DNA of 23,733 nt from positions 1-23,733 of IMG/VR virus record IMGVR_UViG_3300042806_000268; one strand, given 5' to 3'. Origin of the DNA: a virus. The notes beneath the pieces are model-generated. The model was not told the origin of the DNA, did not search any database, and worked only from the letters and a program-made list of their open reading frames with translations. The translations under genes and the position numbers were made by a program. This document shows, piece after piece, positions 235 through 22,819 of the stretch. Numbering within the stretch: the stretch's first letter is position 1; each line of letters begins with the position of its first letter.

Positions 235-263
235 ATTATATTACATTATTTACTTTTTGTCAA
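235..263 (-). promoter_or_regulatory. Consensus sigma-70-type promoter for the Sm-like gene at the left edge
   Basis: On the minus strand, TTGACA (258-263), a 17-base spacer and TATAAT (235-240) match the full bacterial consensus. The -35 box overlaps the last codons of the upstream RimK-RimB fusion gene. The predicted +1 lies near 228, leaving a leader of about 11 bases that holds an AAAGGA ribosome site before the ATG at 217. Confidence 0.8.
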
Positions 264-1734
264 TAGGTTTGATTCTTCTACTTAACACAAACTCTCGGTT
301 TGGATTTACCGAGGCGTTAAATTTTCTTATCATATCCCTATTTAACAATACGTCATTACGTGATCTGATTCTTTCATCAAGACCAAATTCTACATCTTTA
401 TAAACAAACCCGTTAAACGTTAAGTCTAATTTAACCACTGGCCTTTCTTCGCCTTTGTCGTCATCTACGTTTGCTCTAAAAATTTTTACTTTGCGTTCAA
501 GTTTACTTGTATGTTTTTTACCATTATACTTCCAAAATACTTTGCCATCTTTAATTTCTATTTCTTCAGCGTGTAATGCACTAACCTCTGCACCATTACC
601 TGTGTCTAATTTAGCTCTAATTAAACCTACACTTTTTAATTCTATTGTTTCAATGTAACCAATCTCTATGATTGATTGACGATCCCAATTGTCCCTATTA
701 TTTACATAATCAATAATATTATCAACTAATTGTTTACCTTTAATTGGACCTGTTGTGTTGGGTGTGTCAGCATAATCTTCATAATGATAACCTTCGTAAT
801 CTGCACCTGTTCCTGGTGAACCATTTGCCTCTAATACATAAATTTTATCTTTAAATATAATATGATCTACACCTACGATATATGCTTTTGTTGCACGTGC
901 TGTTCTTAAAACTATTTCTATTTCTTCATCAGATAATTTGTATGGTTCTGCTACTGCACCTCTATGAACGTTTGATCTAAATTCTCCTGACTTCTTAACA
1001 CGTCTAGTACAAGCAAATATTTTATTATCTACAACAAAGGTTCTTACATCTGAATCAGTTGGCATATATTCTTGTATTATTAATTCAGCATCGTGTTTAA
1101 ATAGCGCTTGTACTACTGATACCAATGAATCATAACTATCTACTTTAACTACACCGATACCTTGTGTACCTGTTAATGTCTTTACAATAACTGGAAACTT
1201 ATTACCTACAATTTTTAAAGCGTTATCTATATTTTTTTCATTTGATATAAATGCAGTCTTAGGAGTTGGTATATTAAACTTTTCAAATAACAAAGCAGAC
1301 GTAAGTTTATTATCACAAGTTAACATTGATGATCTAGTGTTTAACATAAATGCACCAGAGTTTTGAAATGCTGATATTAAAGAAAGACCTGCTTCATCTT
1401 CAATCGCACCTGCACGTGTTATAACAACAGTATCTTTTCCTACAAACGTATGTTCGTTGTCATCGCCATCATAGTTGTAAATGGTTAATGTATTTTTTTC
1501 TTCGTCTTTGTCTGTAATGATTGAGTGTTTAGTATTGATAACAAAAAAAGGTATTTTTCTTTTTTCACAAGATCTTTGTAAGAAACTTACTGTGATTTCT
1601 TTTTTTGTTTTTTTTATACCAGTCTTTTGCTGACGTACTTTAGGCGATGCCTTAGTTATAACAACAACTGTTATATTATTTTCTTTTGGCTTTTTAGCCT
1701 CTGTTATAAAGTCTTTAAACTTAGGTACTTGCAT
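250..1734 (-). CDS. RimK-type ATP-grasp ligase fused to a RimB-like aspartic (retropepsin-type) protease domain
   Basis: 494 residues. Residues about 140-345 form an ATP-grasp ligase of the RimK group: the phosphate loop KTLTGTQGIGV (185-195), the RimK-typical NVHRGA (255-260) and the metal-binding VLEANGSPG (300-308). RimK ligases add glutamates to the C-terminus of ribosomal protein S6. Residues about 356-486 look like the retropepsin-like family once called ATP-dependent zinc protease (PF05618, RimB): RAKLDTGNGAEVSALHA (373-389) holds the catalytic Asp-Thr-Gly, and VLLNRDMI (462-469) matches the family's LGR-type second motif. In some bacteria RimB is a separate protein that trims the glutamate tail, so here ligase and trimming domain share one chain. 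The first 140 residues contain a RimK-like N-terminal domain with a Lys-rich insert near 35-47. It follows RegA immediately (stop at 1735), so it is the last gene of the clamp operon. The substrate is inferred; another peptide-tagging target is possible. Confidence 0.78.
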   Translation of the reverse strand: MQVPKFKDFITEAKKPKENNITVVVITKASPKVRQQKTGIKKTKKEITVSFLQRSCEKRKIPFFVINTKHSIITDKDEEKNTLTIYNYDGDDNEHTFVGKDTVVITRAGAIEDEAGLSLISAFQNSGAFMLNTRSSMLTCDNKLTSALLFEKFNIPTPKTAFISNEKNIDNALKIVGNKFPVIVKTLTGTQGIGVVKVDSYDSLVSVVQALFKHDAELIIQEYMPTDSDVRTFVVDNKIFACTRRVKKSGEFRSNVHRGAVAEPYKLSDEEIEIVLRTARATKAYIVGVDHIIFKDKIYVLEANGSPGTGADYEGYHYEDYADTPNTTGPIKGKQLVDNIIDYVNNRDNWDRQSIIEIGYIETIELKSVGLIRAKLDTGNGAEVSALHAEEIEIKDGKVFWKYNGKKHTSKLERKVKIFRANVDDDKGEERPVVKLDLTFNGFVYKDVEFGLDERIRSRNDVLLNRDMIRKFNASVNPNREFVLSRRIKPIDKK

Positions 1735-2169
1735 TTATTCACCATTTGTTTCATTATCTTTTGTAATCTTTTTACCAATATTGTATTTAGCTGATAGTGT
1801 CCATTCTTTTTTTTCTTTGAATGGTAATACTTTAATTTGACTTAAAGGTGCTTTGTTTTCAGCTGCCTCTTTTTTAACTATATCAATTAAAGCCCAATCT
1901 TGCAATAGAATTGCAATTGTATTTCTTCTTTGAATATCGTTTTCTGATAACGTAGCAGTTTTACCATCAAGAGCAAATAACTCTTTAAAGTGTACTATGT
2001 AATATTTACCTTGTTTATGAAGTATATGACAAGACTGAAATAATGTCTTATCTTTCCTGGATGCTACACCTATTCTTGTAAGTGTTTCTCTTACTTTCAA
2101 AAAGTCATCAGGCTGTTTGATTGTTACCTCTAACATATCCTCTATTGACCACTTAATGCTCTCACTCAT
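1735..2169 (-). CDS. regA: RegA translational repressor of early mRNAs
   Basis: 144 residues. T4 RegA binds AU-rich sites at the starts of early phage mRNAs and blocks ribosome loading. The match to T4 RegA is direct along most of its length: a block with PDDFLKVRETLTRIGVA (18-34), then QSCHILHKQGKYYIVHFKE, IAILLQDWALIDIV and a C-terminal WTLSAKYNIGKK. About a dozen N-terminal residues and a Ser/Asp/Asn-rich tail are extra relative to T4 (122 residues). The start ATG overlaps the stop codon of the clamp-loader small subunit by one base, which suggests translational coupling. As in T4, it lies just after genes 45, 44 and 62, whose mRNAs T4 RegA is known to repress. The many AT-only starts in this window would be natural targets, but that is inference. 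Confidence 0.95.
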   Translation of the reverse strand: MSESIKWSIEDMLEVTIKQPDDFLKVRETLTRIGVASRKDKTLFQSCHILHKQGKYYIVHFKELFALDGKTATLSENDIQRRNTIAILLQDWALIDIVKKEAAENKAPLSQIKVLPFKEKKEWTLSAKYNIGKKITKDNETNGE

Positions 2170-6681: not shown

Positions 6682-6714
6682 TATTTATATAGTTATTCAA
6701 CTATACTTTGTCAA
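6682..6714 (-). promoter_or_regulatory. Overlapping sigma-70-like and T4-late promoter for hsp20
   Basis: TTGACA (6709-6714), 17 bases and TATATA (6686-6691) form an early-type promoter. The overlapping TATAAATA (6682-6689) is an exact T4 late promoter. Both give a leader of roughly 55 bases to the ATG at 6621. Confidence 0.7.
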
Positions 6715-6859: not shown

Positions 6860-7069
6860 CTAGTAACCTCTTAGATTTCTTAGTTCTTTTTGCTTCTTTA
6901 AAAAGTTAGCTCGCATTTCTTTTGCTTTTCTAACTCTTTTTTCAGATGGCTTTTCATAAGTCTGTTTCATCTTGTACAGTCTCATAACGCCTTCTTTAAG
7001 AAGTTTCTTTTTAAGAATACGCATTGCCTTTTCGACATTGTTATTCTTAACTTCTACTTTGAGTCCCAA
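6860..7069 (-). CDS. rpsU: 30S ribosomal protein S21 homologue (TTG start)
   Basis: 69 residues, full length for S21. In bacteria S21 sits on the 30S platform near the anti-Shine-Dalgarno end of 16S rRNA and supports initiation. The family signature is clear: VEKAMRILKKKLLKEGVMR (12-30), then YEKPSEKRVRKAKEMR (39-54) and a basic tail. Translation must start at TTG 7069, because a TAA stop lies immediately upstream in frame and the next Met is internal. A perfect AAGGAGGT ribosome site lies about 9 bases before the TTG and is the strongest in the window. A long hairpin (7091-7127) precedes it. S21 genes are known in some marine phages; an exchange for host S21 to bias ribosomes is a published idea for the family, not shown here. 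Confidence 0.93.
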   Translation of the reverse strand: MGLKVEVKNNNVEKAMRILKKKLLKEGVMRLYKMKQTYEKPSEKRVRKAKEMRANFLKKQKELRNLRGY

Positions 7070-18139: not shown

Positions 18140-18567
18140 TATACAGCGCCACTTGTAAACCTTCTCCACTCTATGGCATTTTTAATTGTATAAGTTCTAT
18201 TGACTATCATTCTTAATGTACGATCTAAAAAATCAACAACGGTATGTAAATATACAACTTTTTGAGACAATAGTTTTATATCTTCATCAGCATCTAAATA
18301 TTTGTCTATATCAGTTTTTAATATCTTCAAATCAAAAGGTTTATTAATATATACACTCGGGTCTGACTTACCAGTATAATACTCCCACTTATCACGTCTA
18401 AGTGTCTTAAAATCGTCCTCAGCACGTGTTAATAGAAGTTTAAACTTAGTATAGTGTTTCATATACTTATTGTGTAATTGTGGTGTTCTTAATGATTCTA
18501 AATCTAATTCAACATCATTAATTTTAAGGTCTTTGTCTGCTTGTTCTTGTAGTTCTTCAAGTGTCAT
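18139..18567 (-). CDS. uvsY: Recombination mediator UvsY
   Basis: 142 residues from ATG 18567. T4 UvsY loads UvsX recombinase onto gp32-covered single-stranded DNA. The sequence begins MTLEELQEQADKDLKIND, as T4 begins MRLEDLQEELKKD, has similar length (T4 137), keeps a basic central block with YYTG (T4 YYSG), and ends with an Ile/Lys-rich helix like the T4 C-terminus. The start is set by GGAG about eight bases upstream and the one-base overlap with the PP-loop gene stop (TAATG); an in-frame ATG seven codons earlier (18588) is the alternative. It directly precedes uvsW. Confidence 0.9.
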   Translation of the reverse strand: MTLEELQEQADKDLKINDVELDLESLRTPQLHNKYMKHYTKFKLLLTRAEDDFKTLRRDKWEYYTGKSDPSVYINKPFDLKILKTDIDKYLDADEDIKLLSQKVVYLHTVVDFLDRTLRMIVNRTYTIKNAIEWRRFTSGAV

Positions 18568-19208
18568 TAATATACTCCAAATGCCCATTTCTTTTCTTCA
18601 CACCACCAACACTTTTTACAGGGCTTTTTATATTGATTGGTTTGTTCTTGGTTTTCATTTATACAACTATATGTATAAGGTAGTAAAGTTTTTAATAGAT
18701 TGTTTTCTTTATAAATTAAAGCAATATCTTTTTTATTTAAATGATATAAAGGAATAAATTTTTTATCAATTTTAGTACCATCATTATCAATCATATATTT
18801 TTCATTATCTCTTTTTTTATCTCTATTTTCATTATCTTTAAACTTAACATTAGGATTTTTAGTTGCTCCTAAAACAATAAAATCAGTTTGTTTAAAACTA
18901 TTAAAATCGTTAGATGACAGTTCAAATTTATGTTTTAAATACTTTATTATTTTTTTACAAAACTTAAATTTAGTTAATTTAGTTATTTGTTTTAATATAT
19001 CATCAGATTTTTTATTTAAAAAATGATTAGTATGATTTTTAGGTAAGAAAATTAAAGGTGTTATAGTTTTTTTAATTTTACTATCTTTTAAATGTTTTGC
19101 TATCAAATAAGTTAACAATGTACTATCACTTCCACCAGACATACTAACAATAATATTATTAGTAAAAGCAGGCAAATCTAATGTTATTTTTTTATGTATT
19201 TTTAACAT
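18567..19208 (-). CDS. QueC-like PP-loop ATPase
   Basis: 213 residues. The PP-loop SGGSDST (about 24-30) is that of N-type ATP pyrophosphatases, which activate a substrate by adenylation. The C-terminus has YSCIN (about 179-183), PCKKCWWCEEKKWAFG (195-210): four Cys in the C-x(n)-C-x2-C-x2-C arrangement of QueC-type enzymes (7-cyano-7-deazaguanine synthase). QueC makes preQ0 for tRNA, and in some phages for DNA modification. The middle is unusually rich in Lys/Asn/Asp and differs from classic QueC, so related sulfur- or amide-transfer PP-loop enzymes remain possible. No QueD, QueE, QueF or DpdA-like partner is in the window. It has its own promoter ending 11 bases from the ATG and is followed by uvsY with a one-base overlap. 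Confidence 0.7.
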   Translation of the reverse strand: MLKIHKKITLDLPAFTNNIIVSMSGGSDSTLLTYLIAKHLKDSKIKKTITPLIFLPKNHTNHFLNKKSDDILKQITKLTKFKFCKKIIKYLKHKFELSSNDFNSFKQTDFIVLGATKNPNVKFKDNENRDKKRDNEKYMIDNDGTKIDKKFIPLYHLNKKDIALIYKENNLLKTLLPYTYSCINENQEQTNQYKKPCKKCWWCEEKKWAFGVY

Positions 19209-19886: not shown

Positions 19887-20957
19887 TTAACTTATAATAC
19901 GTCTTTTTGTACCTTTACGTTTAATATCTAATGTTAAACAATGTACACCACCTTCCCAGTATAAACTATGACGTTGAGGAATACAATGGCTATTAATGTT
20001 TAGAGTTTTTAGATATTTAAACAATGCAGGTATTTCTCTATTAAACAATATATTATTACTATCTAATATTAATACATTTAAATCAAAACAAACTTCTTGT
20101 GAAAATCCTCTCCAATTATTTAAATATGATTCCAAATAAGACTTTGAATATTTACCACCCGTTTGCTTATATTCATTAACATACTTTTCAAAGTTTAAAG
20201 GTGGAAGATACTTACCAACGTCTATTAAATTTTTATTCCTTAAACATAAAGGAACCCAATCAATATTATTATGTATTACCGTATCATCATTTATTAAAAT
20301 AAACCCGTGATCTATGTGGCCATAATTATCAGTTATAGTTCCTTCGTTTTCAATAAAACGGATATCAGGTAAGTTTCTTTTAACCCAATTCAATCCTCTT
20401 TTAGAACCAGGACCTGTTCCGTTATAAATTACACTATCGCCTGCTTTAAACATAACAGCAGTATGAAACAATAATTGTTCTTTTAATAAATCACTATAGA
20501 TATCTTTTCTAGTATACCAATTATCTATATTATTTAAATCTTTTAATATAGGGGGTGGACTAGATAACCAGTTATAACCTTCTTTAAATAACTGTGTAAA
20601 TATTTTTGAATAAGATAAAGAATCAAAATATCTATCAGTATAACTTGTATAAGTTTGTAATATAGTATCACCTATAACAATGTATTGGTCTCTTGGAACT
20701 ATAGGACAAATTGGAAAATTAACTTTAAAGTTAACTAAATCAAATTCTTTTTTATATTTAATAACTTCAGGTCTGTGTACTTTAATGTTTGATTTAATTA
20801 AAAAATCAGAAAGATTATTTAAATCTTCTTTAGTTTCTTCTAATATTTTATTAAATCCATCTATAGTATCTTTAGGTAAAGCCCAATCTAAATCGCCGGG
20901 ATCATAACAATCGCCAACAATAACTTCCTGTAAAGGATCAAATTCTGTGTATATCAT
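19887..20957 (-). CDS. Glycine amidinotransferase-like enzyme (AGAT/guanidino-group superfamily)
   Basis: 356 residues. AGAT enzymes move an amidino group from arginine to an acceptor amine. The start YTEFDPLQEVIVGD (3-16) is the family N-terminus. PRDQYIVIGDTI (88-99) matches the conserved xRDxxxVIG strand. HID (214-216) corresponds to the AGAT catalytic His, and GGVHCLTLDIKRKG (336-349) to the active-site Cys loop, with Cys340 as nucleophile. The third catalytic residue, Asp in AGAT's DAADF, is not obvious here: the region aligns with HTAVMFKAG (165-173), so the enzyme may have a changed mechanism or acceptor. The length matches the family (about 350-420). Its ATG overlaps the preceding small gene by four bases, under a T4-late promoter between capsid and tail genes. 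Confidence 0.85.
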   Translation of the reverse strand: MIYTEFDPLQEVIVGDCYDPGDLDWALPKDTIDGFNKILEETKEDLNNLSDFLIKSNIKVHRPEVIKYKKEFDLVNFKVNFPICPIVPRDQYIVIGDTILQTYTSYTDRYFDSLSYSKIFTQLFKEGYNWLSSPPPILKDLNNIDNWYTRKDIYSDLLKEQLLFHTAVMFKAGDSVIYNGTGPGSKRGLNWVKRNLPDIRFIENEGTITDNYGHIDHGFILINDDTVIHNNIDWVPLCLRNKNLIDVGKYLPPLNFEKYVNEYKQTGGKYSKSYLESYLNNWRGFSQEVCFDLNVLILDSNNILFNREIPALFKYLKTLNINSHCIPQRHSLYWEGGVHCLTLDIKRKGTKRRIIS

Positions 20958-21478: not shown

Positions 21479-22819
21479 TTACATTAAGTTAGTTACTTGA
21501 ACTTTTCTGTAGTATCTGTTCGCATTCGCAGAACCAGCACCATTGATAACCGCAGTTGCAGATGAAGCACCAGCTTCAGCAAATGGGTTAGCTTGGATAC
21601 CGTATCTCGTTTTGAAACCAATTTTTGGTTGGAACGAGTCTTGTCCTACTGCTCTCACCATTTGTAGTGGAACGTATGGACAATAGAATATTCCGGCATC
21701 ATACTGTGATGTACCTTTATATCCTACTACGAAGAACTGTTTAGCTGCTTGGTTTGCAGAATACGGATCGATATAAACTTTATATCTTCCATTTAATATT
21801 CCAGCAAAAGTGTTACCTGTGTCATCTACATTAAGATTATTGTTTAATGCAGGTGTATAGTCTAACACGCCAGCCATTTGTAGAGCAGATGCAACATCTG
21901 AAGAAGTGATCAGAATGTTACCTTTTCCTCTACGTGTTCTTTGTGCGATAAAGTTTGCTTCTCTTTCAACTTGGAACATTAAACCTTTGAAACGTTCTAC
22001 GGACCATCTTCCGTTTGAATCTGTATCTAAGTCAAATACACCAGCTGTTGTTGTAGAAACTTGAGCACCAATTTCTGAATTGATGTAAATAGTTCTTACA
22101 ACTTCTCTATTGATTTCCGCAAGGATCTCAGCAGATAAAATGTTTGCAAGTTCTGTTTCAGCATCTAAACCGTGGATTGCTTTTAGATCTTGAGCAAGTT
22201 CCATAGTGTATTCAGCTTTAAGGGCTCTTGATTTAGCAGTTACAGTCGATTTCTCGATTGAAAACGCCATTTCAGCAAAGCTATTTCCAGAAGAATCACC
22301 TAGTGCTTCAGCAGCAGCAGTTGACATTCCTGTACCAGTTGTATAAGTTCCTGGTGAAGCGTCATTTAATAACGCTGGGTTAGTTCCTGAATCAGCAGTA
22401 GATGAGTATCCACCTGTTGAAGAACCAGCTTTGTTTCTACCAGAGTAGTCAGTATCAGCAGCATCAAATAATGCTTCATTTGATGTAGCTTGTGATTGAT
22501 ATTTCGCTCTCATAGCGAAGATTAGTCCAGTTGGACCAGTCATAGGCTGTACGCCTGCTATGTCGTATGCGATAAGATTTGGCATTGCTCTTCTTACTAA
22601 AGAAATTAGGATTGGATCCCAATTTTGAATGTAAGATGAATCAGTGCTGTTTACTGGAGCAGCTTCTGACATAAATGCTCTATCTTCTCTTAGTGCTCTC
22701 TCTTGGTTTTCCAAGATAACTGCAGTTACCGCTCTTTTATAACTATCCGTAACTTTTGGGAGTTCTGGATGCTCAAGGACCGGTGACCACTTTTTAACTA
22801 ATTGTTCAGATAAGTACAT
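21479..22819 (-). CDS. 23: Major capsid protein gp23
   Basis: 446 residues. It forms the hexamers of the T4-type capsid. The N-terminus, LSEQLVKKWSPVLEHPELP (3-21) then RAVTAVILENQERAL, is the classic gp23 delta peptide. FMSEAAP (49-55) gives a likely prohead-protease site after Glu52 (consensus hydrophobic-x-Glu), so the mature protein would begin at Ala53; T4 cuts after residue 65. Later blocks such as GPTGLIFAMRAKY (about 95-107), EYTMELAQDLKAIHGLDAE and the KVYIDPYS segment are typical of the family. Length is shorter than T4 (521) and normal for marine relatives. GGGAG lies about 12 bases before the ATG. The strong terminator after it isolates this highly expressed gene; codons are richer in G/C than in its neighbours. 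Confidence 0.97.
   Translation of the reverse strand: MYLSEQLVKKWSPVLEHPELPKVTDSYKRAVTAVILENQERALREDRAFMSEAAPVNSTDSSYIQNWDPILISLVRRAMPNLIAYDIAGVQPMTGPTGLIFAMRAKYQSQATSNEALFDAADTDYSGRNKAGSSTGGYSSTADSGTNPALLNDASPGTYTTGTGMSTAAAEALGDSSGNSFAEMAFSIEKSTVTAKSRALKAEYTMELAQDLKAIHGLDAETELANILSAEILAEINREVVRTIYINSEIGAQVSTTTAGVFDLDTDSNGRWSVERFKGLMFQVEREANFIAQRTRRGKGNILITSSDVASALQMAGVLDYTPALNNNLNVDDTGNTFAGILNGRYKVYIDPYSANQAAKQFFVVGYKGTSQYDAGIFYCPYVPLQMVRAVGQDSFQPKIGFKTRYGIQANPFAEAGASSATAVINGAGSANANRYYRKVQVTNLM

What the first reader, a model, noticed from the sequence alone, without database searches (positions are those of the whole stretch)
250..1734. RimK-type glutamate ligase fused to its apparent antagonist, a RimB-like protease
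A complete ATP-grasp RimK domain (TGTQGIGV loop, NVHRGA, EANGSPG) is followed in the same chain by a retropepsin-like domain with DTG at 377-379. In bacteria RimK adds glutamates to ribosomal protein S6 and RimB removes them. A phage enzyme with both activities could set tail length on host S6 or on another peptide, and it sits at the end of the clamp/RegA operon, hence early.
Basis: partly seen in the sequence, partly recalled or inferred. Interest (0 to 1): 0.75.

Follow-up and report, generated by a model that had tools for sequence, protein, structure and literature searches.

The report
Capsid-tagged phage polyglutamate ligase-protease fusion
This water-borne T4-like phage makes a single protein that probably both adds and trims glutamate tails on other proteins (in bacteria this is done to ribosomal protein S6), and the protein starts with a short address label of the kind that loads proteins into the phage head, so it is probably delivered into the host cell together with the viral DNA.

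Summary
The ORF is real: 494 aa, minus strand, 253-1734. It has a RimK ATP-grasp domain (Pfam 8.6e-42; RimK-family cut-off passed) and a C-terminal PF05618 retropepsin domain (38.8 bits, cut-off 27; VIA Z 13.7 to DUF785, 12.7 to RloA2). Glutamate/ATP-binding residues of RimK and the catalytic and polyglutamate-binding residues of RimB/RloA are invariant, or nearly so, in 99 homologues. The fusion itself is not new: Monier et al. 2008 (PMC2530865) saw phage RimK+PF05618 next to regA. Every homologue whose N-terminus was identified keeps it, ahead of a highly variable linker. The strict T4-type tag occurs on at least 46 unrelated phage protein families (scrambled control: 0). In cyanophage S-CREM2 all four proteins with such a tag at the annotated start are mass-spectrometry-detected virion proteins (P=0.003). 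I conclude that this is a virion-packaged, probably injected, polyglutamate ligase-protease. Host S6 is the likeliest target, but that step is untested. Against: no late promoter directly upstream; host unknown.

The parts
253..1734 (-). RimK-PF05618 fusion ORF, 494 aa (stop codon 250-252)
   Evidence: homologues
1699..1734 (-). N-terminal tag MQVPKFKDFITE (residues 1-12), capsid-targeting-like; predicted prohead-protease cut after E12
   Evidence: F6 and E12 100/100 and F/Y9 99/100 in the alignment; T4 CTS residues 4/7/8/10; scan of unrelated tagged proteins and scrambled control; S-CREM2 virion proteins
1675..1698 (-). hypervariable linker, residues 13-20, just after the predicted cut
   Evidence: mean column entropy 2.17 bits against 0.89 for the whole protein
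1315..1674 (-). N-terminal part of the RimK module, residues 21-140 (poly-Glu-binding Arg107 = RimK R64)
   Evidence: TIGR00768 match from residue 48; alignment to 7qyr from residue 104; conservation
808..1314 (-). RimK ATP-grasp domain, residues 141-309
   Evidence: PF08443 8.6e-42; best solved structures are Pseudomonas RimK 7qys/7qyr and the RimK-RpsF complex 5zk6
280..660 (-). PF05618 retropepsin-like (RimB/RloA-type) domain, residues 359-485
   Evidence: PF05618 1.1e-9; model m6beb7eefb176 matches 2pma Z 13.7, 9g59 (RloA2) Z 12.7
598..606 (-). catalytic DTG motif, residues 377-379 (followed by Asn rather than the usual Ala)
   Evidence: invariant in 99/99 homologues
1735..2169 (-). RegA translational repressor, immediately upstream (stop codon directly followed by the fusion's ATG)
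   Evidence: phrog_242 2.4e-62; sequence
22664..22675 (-). context: FMSE|A cleavage-like site in this phage's own gp23 (residues 49-52), same form as FITE|A in the tag
   Evidence: gp23 = phrog_138
6860..7069 (-). context: phage-encoded ribosomal protein bS21
   Evidence: PF01165 3.3e-16

Best explanation
The gene encodes a polyglutamate 'writer-eraser' that is carried in the phage head. (1) The first 12 residues are a T4-type capsid-targeting sequence; they bring the protein into the prohead core, and the prohead protease (gp21) removes them after Glu12. (2) The mature enzyme is ejected into the host with the DNA. (3) Its RimK domain ligates glutamates onto a protein C-terminus using ATP, and its retropepsin domain, which probably acts as a dimer, trims or resets polyglutamate tails and may stimulate the ligase, as RimB does. 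(4) The likeliest substrate is host ribosomal protein S6. Setting its tail at the moment of infection would retune translation before any phage gene is expressed, and would act alongside the phage's own bS21, RegA and peptide deformylase. Status: the presence of both domains, conservation of catalytic and ligand-binding residues, and conservation of the tag are shown here. Packaging is inferred from the tag and from virion proteomics of other phages. Injection, enzymatic activity and S6 as target are inferred. My step probabilities: packaged about 0.8; injected given packaged about 0.85; polyglutamate chemistry about 0.75; S6 as main target about 0.45. The confidence below is for steps 1-3 taken together.
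For: Domains and fold. Conserved function residues: RimK R64, R189, N262, R211 and the metal/ATP residues map to R107, R231, N304, R253, D290, E302, K143, K185 (99/99, or 98/99 for K185), and H215, R216 to H257, R258 (97/99); RloA K46, D48, R114, R137 map to K375, D377, R431, R455 (99/99, R455 98/99). Tag: F6 and E12 100/100, F/Y9 99/100, while residues 13-20 are far more variable than the protein average; the motif occurs 0 times at 42,645 other positions of the same proteins. These are the positions shown by mutation to drive targeting (4, 7) and processing (8, 10) of the T4 IPIII tag (PMC9026906). The divergent homologue in L210 starts MEKFKSFITE, in exact T4 register. Strict-tag scan of IMG/VR: at least 120 stretches, 46 unrelated families including T4-type internal proteins; scrambled control 0. 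This phage's gp23 carries FMSE|A. In S-CREM2 the four proteins with the tag at the annotated start are all MS-detected virion proteins (SAM hydrolase, kinase, cytidylyltransferase, gp136), P=0.003 (PMC10665884). The remote fused homologue in YerA41 is annotated 'structural protein' in a phage with an LC-MS/MS particle proteome.
Against: No TATAAAT/ATAAATA motif within 120 bp upstream of the gene in 128 loci, whereas several tagged virion genes of S-CREM2 have one; the gene sits in the clamp/RegA operon. The tag has 4 rather than 2 residues between Met and the first Phe, and P1' varies (Q, A, T, E, K). Only about one tagged protein was found per related genome. No virion proteome of this clade exists in the sources read. 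The scores to the RimB and S6-ligase equivalog models are far below cut-off, and DTG is followed by Asn rather than Ala. The one bacterial RimBK tested was protease-active but did not glutamylate RpsF (PMC11957791). YerA41 particle proteomics also lists cytoplasmic enzymes, so carry-over is possible, and its homologue lacks the tag.
Confidence: 0.55

Rival explanations
1. Ordinary intracellular auxiliary enzyme. The fusion is made from the clamp/RegA operon after infection, glutamylates and trims host S6 (or makes free poly-Glu), and the N-terminal tag serves another role (oligomerisation, stability) or is only incidentally packaged.
For: Operon position directly after RegA and no late promoter directly upstream in 128 loci. 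Untagged RimK homologues exist in cyanophages such as S-RIM12. Monier et al. 2008 proposed this reading.
Against: The tag is invariant at just the residues that matter for T4 head targeting, is followed by hypervariable sequence, recurs on dozens of unrelated proteins, and marks virion proteins in S-CREM2. The first 16 residues are predicted disordered, unlike an oligomerisation element.
Confidence: 0.2
2. Packaged, but acting on phage proteins: the enzyme works inside the prohead or on phage core/internal proteins, adding or removing glutamates during head maturation, rather than on host S6.
For: Capsid-targeting-like tag; the T4 prohead protease itself cuts after Glu (PMC9026906).
Against: RimK needs ATP and free Glu, which are poorly available inside a packaged head. 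No phage substrate with a suitable C-terminal Glu tail was identified, though none was searched for systematically. Other tagged proteins known from T4 act in the host (Alt, IPI-III).
Confidence: 0.12
3. Packaged and injected, but the target is a host protein other than S6, for example another glutamylated protein, a peptide or cofactor, or a component of a defence system.
For: The RimK/ATP-grasp superfamily modifies many substrates; the equivalog model for the S6 ligase is not met (108 against 331 bits). S6 tails in the one marine alphaproteobacterial order sampled do not end in Glu, though a host link to that order is not established. T4 injected proteins often counter defence systems (PMC12373910).
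Against: The closest solved structures are RimK proper, including the RimK-RpsF complex, and the paired polyglutamate protease fits the Rim system. The phage's translation-related genes (bS21, RegA, PDF) suggest a translation theme.
Confidence: 0.3

Closest known systems
Marine phage RimK beside regA, some with C-terminal DUF785/PF05618 (Monier, Claverie, Ogata 2008, PMC2530865)
   Same: Same gene, same place (next to regA), same domain order; this is the same family.
   Different: That paper did not describe the capsid-targeting-like tag, the retropepsin nature of DUF785, or the polyglutamate-binding residues, and thought only of enzyme made during infection.
Bacterial RimBK hybrid (Desulfotalea psychrophila DP2392; PMC11957791)
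   Same: RimK and RimB-type domains in one chain; polyglutamate protease activity shown there.
   Different: Opposite domain order (RimB first); cellular; no N-terminal tag reported; RpsF glutamylation was not seen. K-B order is reported for haloarchaea (PMC2530865).
RimK-RimB system of Pseudomonas (separate genes rimA/B/K)
   Same: Ligase fold and residues; retropepsin with DTG and poly-Glu-contacting Lys/Arg.
   Different: Fused, phage-borne, no RimA partner found; below the equivalog cut-offs; DTGN rather than DTGA.
RloA retropepsins of Pseudomonas (PMC12239564; PDB 9g58, 9g59) and DUF785 protein Lpg0085 (2pma)
   Same: Closest solved folds of the C-terminal domain; the same poly-Glu-contacting residues.
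   Different: RloA is secreted and works with RloB/RloC; here the domain is cytosolic or virion-borne and fused to RimK.
T4 injected head proteins (Alt, IPI, IPII, IPIII) with capsid-targeting sequences
   Same: N-terminal targeting/cleavage motif with the same residue spacing; enzymes or effectors delivered with DNA.
   Different: Cargo is an ATP-grasp ligase plus retropepsin; the tag starts two residues later; no late promoter directly upstream.

Membership tests
RimK family alpha-L-glutamate ligase (TIGR00768) | Score above the curated subfamily cut-off | tested here: met
   151.3 bits against 143.4
RimK family alpha-L-glutamate ligase (TIGR00768) | Poly-Glu, ATP and metal-binding residues | tested here: met
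   R64, R189, N262 of RimK_PA conserved as R107, R231, N304; D290, E302, K143, K185 also conserved; S68 is not (Ile111)
S6-specific RimK (NF007764 equivalog) | Score above the equivalog cut-off | tested here: not met
   108.1 bits against 331
S6-specific RimK (NF007764 equivalog) | Adds Glu to the S6 C-terminus | not testable with these tools
   needs enzyme assay or mass spectrometry
PF05618 (DUF785 / 'Zn_protease') retropepsins | Profile match above gathering score and retropepsin fold | tested here: met
   38.8 bits against 27; 2pma Z 13.7, 111 aligned, 2.4 A; 9g59 Z 12.7; retroviral proteases 9.6 and below
PF05618 (DUF785 / 'Zn_protease') retropepsins | Catalytic DTG and poly-Glu-contacting Lys/Arg | tested here: met
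   K375, D377, T378, G379, R431 99/99 and R455 98/99
PF05618 (DUF785 / 'Zn_protease') retropepsins | Ala after DTG (characteristic of retropepsins, PMC12239564) | tested here: not met
   Asn380 in 99/99
RimB proper (NF052261 equivalog) | Score above the equivalog cut-off | tested here: not met
   25.3 bits against 200; RloA3 33.7, RloA2 31.1, RloA1 26.6, also below their cut-offs
Bacterial RimBK hybrid | RimB domain N-terminal to RimK | tested here: not met
   order here is RimK then PF05618
T4-type capsid-targeting sequence proteins | N-terminal aromatic residues at CTS positions 4 and 7, hydrophobic 8, Glu 10 | tested here: met
   present as F6, F/Y9, I/L/F/V10, E12, two residues later than in T4; exact register in L210
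T4-type capsid-targeting sequence proteins | Same motif on unrelated proteins and enrichment among virion proteins in a related phage | tested here: met
   46 families, scrambled control 0; S-CREM2 4 of 4, P=0.003
T4-type capsid-targeting sequence proteins | Late expression | tested here: inconclusive
   no late-promoter motif within 120 bp upstream; one TATAAATA at 6689 upstream of Hsp20 could read through
T4-type capsid-targeting sequence proteins | Packaged, cleaved by gp21 and injected | not testable with these tools
   needs virion proteomics

The most novel reading that the evidence does not exclude
A whole clade of aquatic T4-like phages, including relatives of pelagiphage Mosig, delivers a ready-made ribosome-modifying enzyme from the virion, so that the polyglutamate tail of host S6 is rewritten at time zero, before any phage gene is transcribed. 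It would be an injected translational counterpart of T4 Alt, which modifies RNA polymerase.
Probability: 0.3. Interest if true: 0.85.

Novelty: new variant of a known kind. Interest (0 to 1): 0.62.

Why it matters
Injected phage proteins known from T4 act on RNA polymerase (Alt) or on restriction enzymes (IPs). I know of none that sets a covalent mark on the ribosome, and the papers searched did not show one. If the fusion is packaged, the old question of why marine phages carry RimK becomes a direct test: look for it in virions and look at S6 within minutes of infection with protein synthesis blocked. It would also supply a natural one-chain polyglutamate ligase-protease to study how RimB controls RimK. 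More broadly, the tag scan gives a simple way to list head-delivered effectors of T4-like phages from sequence alone.

Tried and rejected
Chance match of the C-terminal domain: rejected (above Pfam cut-off, retropepsin fold, conserved poly-Glu residues). Other ATP-grasp identities (LysX, glutathione synthetase, D-Ala ligase, cyanophycin synthetase): much weaker scores, so the 'putative glutathione synthetase' annotation of the Mosig homologue is not supported. Late promoter directly upstream: looked for in 128 loci, not found. Cellular origin of the bacterial-labelled hits: L210 ('Parcubacteria' MAG) and L211 (TMED93 MAG) are T4-like phage contigs with clamp, loaders and regA. Host S6 tail: S6 was fetched from the order of the TMED93 MAG; the tails read do not end in Glu, but the host of this phage is unknown, so nothing is concluded. 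A prior report of the tag on phage RimK: not found in the papers searched. Tag on many proteins of the same phage: not found; it is rare. The first count of tag conservation used a pattern that required Lys after the first Phe and was biased; it was redone without that condition. In that redo the tag was matched in 132 of 135 frames; of the other three, L054 and L055 have the MQVPK start beyond the 45 residues searched, and L267 was the wrong frame.

Full report
What is there. The window is a 23.7-kb T4-like phage record with gp23, gp22, a tail-tube protein, UvsW/UvsY, gp46/47, gp55, clamp, clamp loaders and RegA. The reported ORF is on the minus strand, 253-1734, 494 aa, starting at the base after the RegA stop codon. 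Pfam finds RimK (PF08443, 8.6e-42, residues 141-309) and PF05618 (1.1e-9, 38.8 bits against a cut-off of 27, residues 359-485). NCBIfam places it above the RimK-family cut-off (151.3 against 143.4), but far below the S6-ligase and RimB equivalog cut-offs.

Relatives. About 100 distinct homologues were gathered from IMG/VR. The nearest isolate is Pelagibacter phage Mosig (32%, same fusion, same place between regA and DNA polymerase). Pelagibacter phage HTVC008M lacks it at that place. Melnitz (Methylophilales phage) has a RimK-only homologue with the N-terminal tag, and cyanophage S-RIM12 a RimK-only one without it. Yersinia phages YerA41 and GN1 have a remote fused homologue annotated 'structural protein'; YerA41 has an LC-MS/MS particle proteome (PMC7354516), though that list also includes cytoplasmic enzymes.

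Catalytic competence. The full model (pLDDT 75) matches Pseudomonas RimK (7qys, E 1e-20, TM-score 0.79-0.80 by target) and the RimK-RpsF complex 5zk6. The C-terminal domain modelled alone (pLDDT 78) matches DUF785 2pma (Z 13.7, 111 residues, 2.4 A) and RloA2 9g59 (Z 12.7), with retroviral proteases lower at 9.6 and below. Residues contacting poly-glutamate in P. aeruginosa RimK (PMC10092738) map by the profile alignment to invariant R107, R231 and N304; S68 maps to an unconserved Ile111. Residues of RloA that contact poly-glutamate and are shared with RimB (K46, R114, R137; catalytic D48; PMC12239564) map to K375, R431, R455 and D377. The spacing D48-K46 is identical, and the 23 residues between R114 and R137 equal those in the aligned RloA2 sequence, which aligns to the 24 here with one gap. 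These residues are invariant in 99 homologues, apart from single gaps at K185 and R455. One departure: DTG is followed by Asn, not Ala.

The N-terminal tag. All 99 homologues share an N-terminal motif F..[FY][ILFV].E: F6 and E12 100/100, F/Y9 99/100, I10 I/L/F/V. Residues 13-20 right after it are far more variable (mean entropy 2.17 bits against 0.89 for the whole protein). The motif was matched within the first 45 residues of 132 of 135 frames; of the other three, two carry the MQVPK start further in and one was a wrong frame. In T4, the first 10 residues of IPIII (MKTYQEFIAE) suffice for packaging; residues 4 and 7 carry targeting, and 8 and 10 carry cleavage by gp21 (PMC9026906; the IPIII sequence itself is from my own knowledge, and the same form is seen in L134). 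These positions correspond to F6, F9, I10, E12, shifted by two; the divergent homologue in L210 (MEKFKSFITE) is in exact register. The phage's own gp23 has FMSE|A, at the place corresponding to the T4 gp23 cleavage site, and relatives have FLSE|A, FMTE|T and FLNE|A (correspondence to T4 from my own knowledge). The first 16 residues are predicted disordered.

Is the tag a real signal? The 112 proteins of 60 aa or more fall into 46 families once the tag is removed, among them T4-type internal proteins (L134). A permuted-codon control found none. 49 of the 120 loci, which are only a few kb long, carry a T4-like core gene. One tagged family is the phrog_395 cytidyltransferase, a family reported as frequently found in cyanophage virion proteomes (PMC10665884). 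I therefore tested S-CREM2, whose virion proteome is tabulated. The four proteins with the tag at the annotated start are gp6 SAM hydrolase (MKDFDSFLEE), gp14 kinase (VKRFDAFLTE), gp154 cytidylyltransferase (MKNFSSFLTE) and gp136 (MQTFSMFFSE); all four are among the 52 of 219 proteins detected (P=0.003; with a looser pattern 4 of 5, P=0.012). Virion proteins gp13 (MKDLHSFLTE) and Cas9 (internal FASFMAEAA) carry variants. This one phage is a small sample, but the result is independent of the RimK family.

Within related genomes the tag is rare: one ORF in the window, one in the whole Mosig genome (the fusion itself), two in a 109-kb relative, two and one in two shorter ones (chance-looking hits set aside). 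So the fusion is the main, sometimes the only, tagged protein of its phage.

How it probably works. The evidence favours a polyglutamate ligase-protease loaded into the head by the tag, cut after Glu12 and delivered with the DNA. Bacterial RimB trims polyglutamylated RpsF and also stimulates RimK (PMC11957791), so a fused chain could set tail length by itself. Host S6 is the likeliest substrate because the nearest structures are RimK proper and the phage also carries bS21 (PF01165), RegA and a deformylase, a translation theme. That step is inference. The one bacterial hybrid tested (opposite order) was protease-active without RpsF ligation, and the host of this window is unknown. The absence of a late-promoter motif within 120 bp upstream is the main evidence against packaging; several S-CREM2 tagged genes do have one.

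What is known already. Monier et al. 2008 found phage RimK next to regA in ocean metagenomes, some with DUF785 at the C-terminus, and suggested modification of the translation machinery (PMC2530865). The fusion is thus not new. New here, as far as the papers searched show, are the capsid-targeting-like tag and what follows from it, and the conservation of polyglutamate-binding residues in both domains.

Noticed in passing
L089-L208 (IMG/VR loci): At least 46 unrelated families of phage proteins carry the strict T4 capsid-targeting tag MKxFxEFIxEA; most have no known function. Scanning for the tag looks like a cheap way to list head-delivered effectors.
   Followed up: partly
L153:9512-10042 (+): A tagged protein (MKKYLEFIKEA...) matching the 2'-5' RNA ligase superfamily (PF13563), and below cut-off the anti-CBASS protein Acb1: possibly an injected anti-CBASS enzyme.
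   Followed up: partly
L099:1211-1858 (-) and 12 relatives: A tagged family of 13 with 'YHGTS/AHYTS' starts; one member (L151) weakly matches RNA 2'-phosphotransferase (0.0025), which suggests an ADP-ribosyltransferase-like fold, reminiscent of T4 Alt.
   Followed up: partly
L313:7704-10313 (-), phage S-CREM2 gp12: The Cas9-like virion protein of S-CREM2 has FASFMAEAA near its N-terminus, a capsid-tag variant about 15 residues after the annotated start; the annotated start may be too early.
   Followed up: partly
L280:7328-7999 (+), in the 109-kb relative G001: A second tagged ORF, MKTFKALIQEGVYDPGIFKAFFLAGGPGSGKS..., a P-loop kinase-like protein (phrog_12810, ATPase phrog_2071).
   Followed up: partly
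window 6860-7069 (-): Phage-encoded ribosomal protein bS21 (PF01165 3.3e-16), as in Mosig and HTVC008M.
   Followed up: partly
window 18567-19208 (-): QueC/PP-loop ATPase-like protein (PF06508 2e-06) between UvsY and the tail-tube gene.
   Followed up: no
window 19887-20957 (-): A 356-aa protein with no Pfam match (first-glance resemblance to amidinotransferases) placed among head and tail genes.
   Followed up: no
L210 and L211: Contigs binned into a Parcubacteria MAG and an alphaproteobacterial MAG (TMED93) are T4-like phage fragments with clamp, clamp loaders, regA and the RimK fusion: mis-binned phage DNA or infected-cell DNA.
   Followed up: yes
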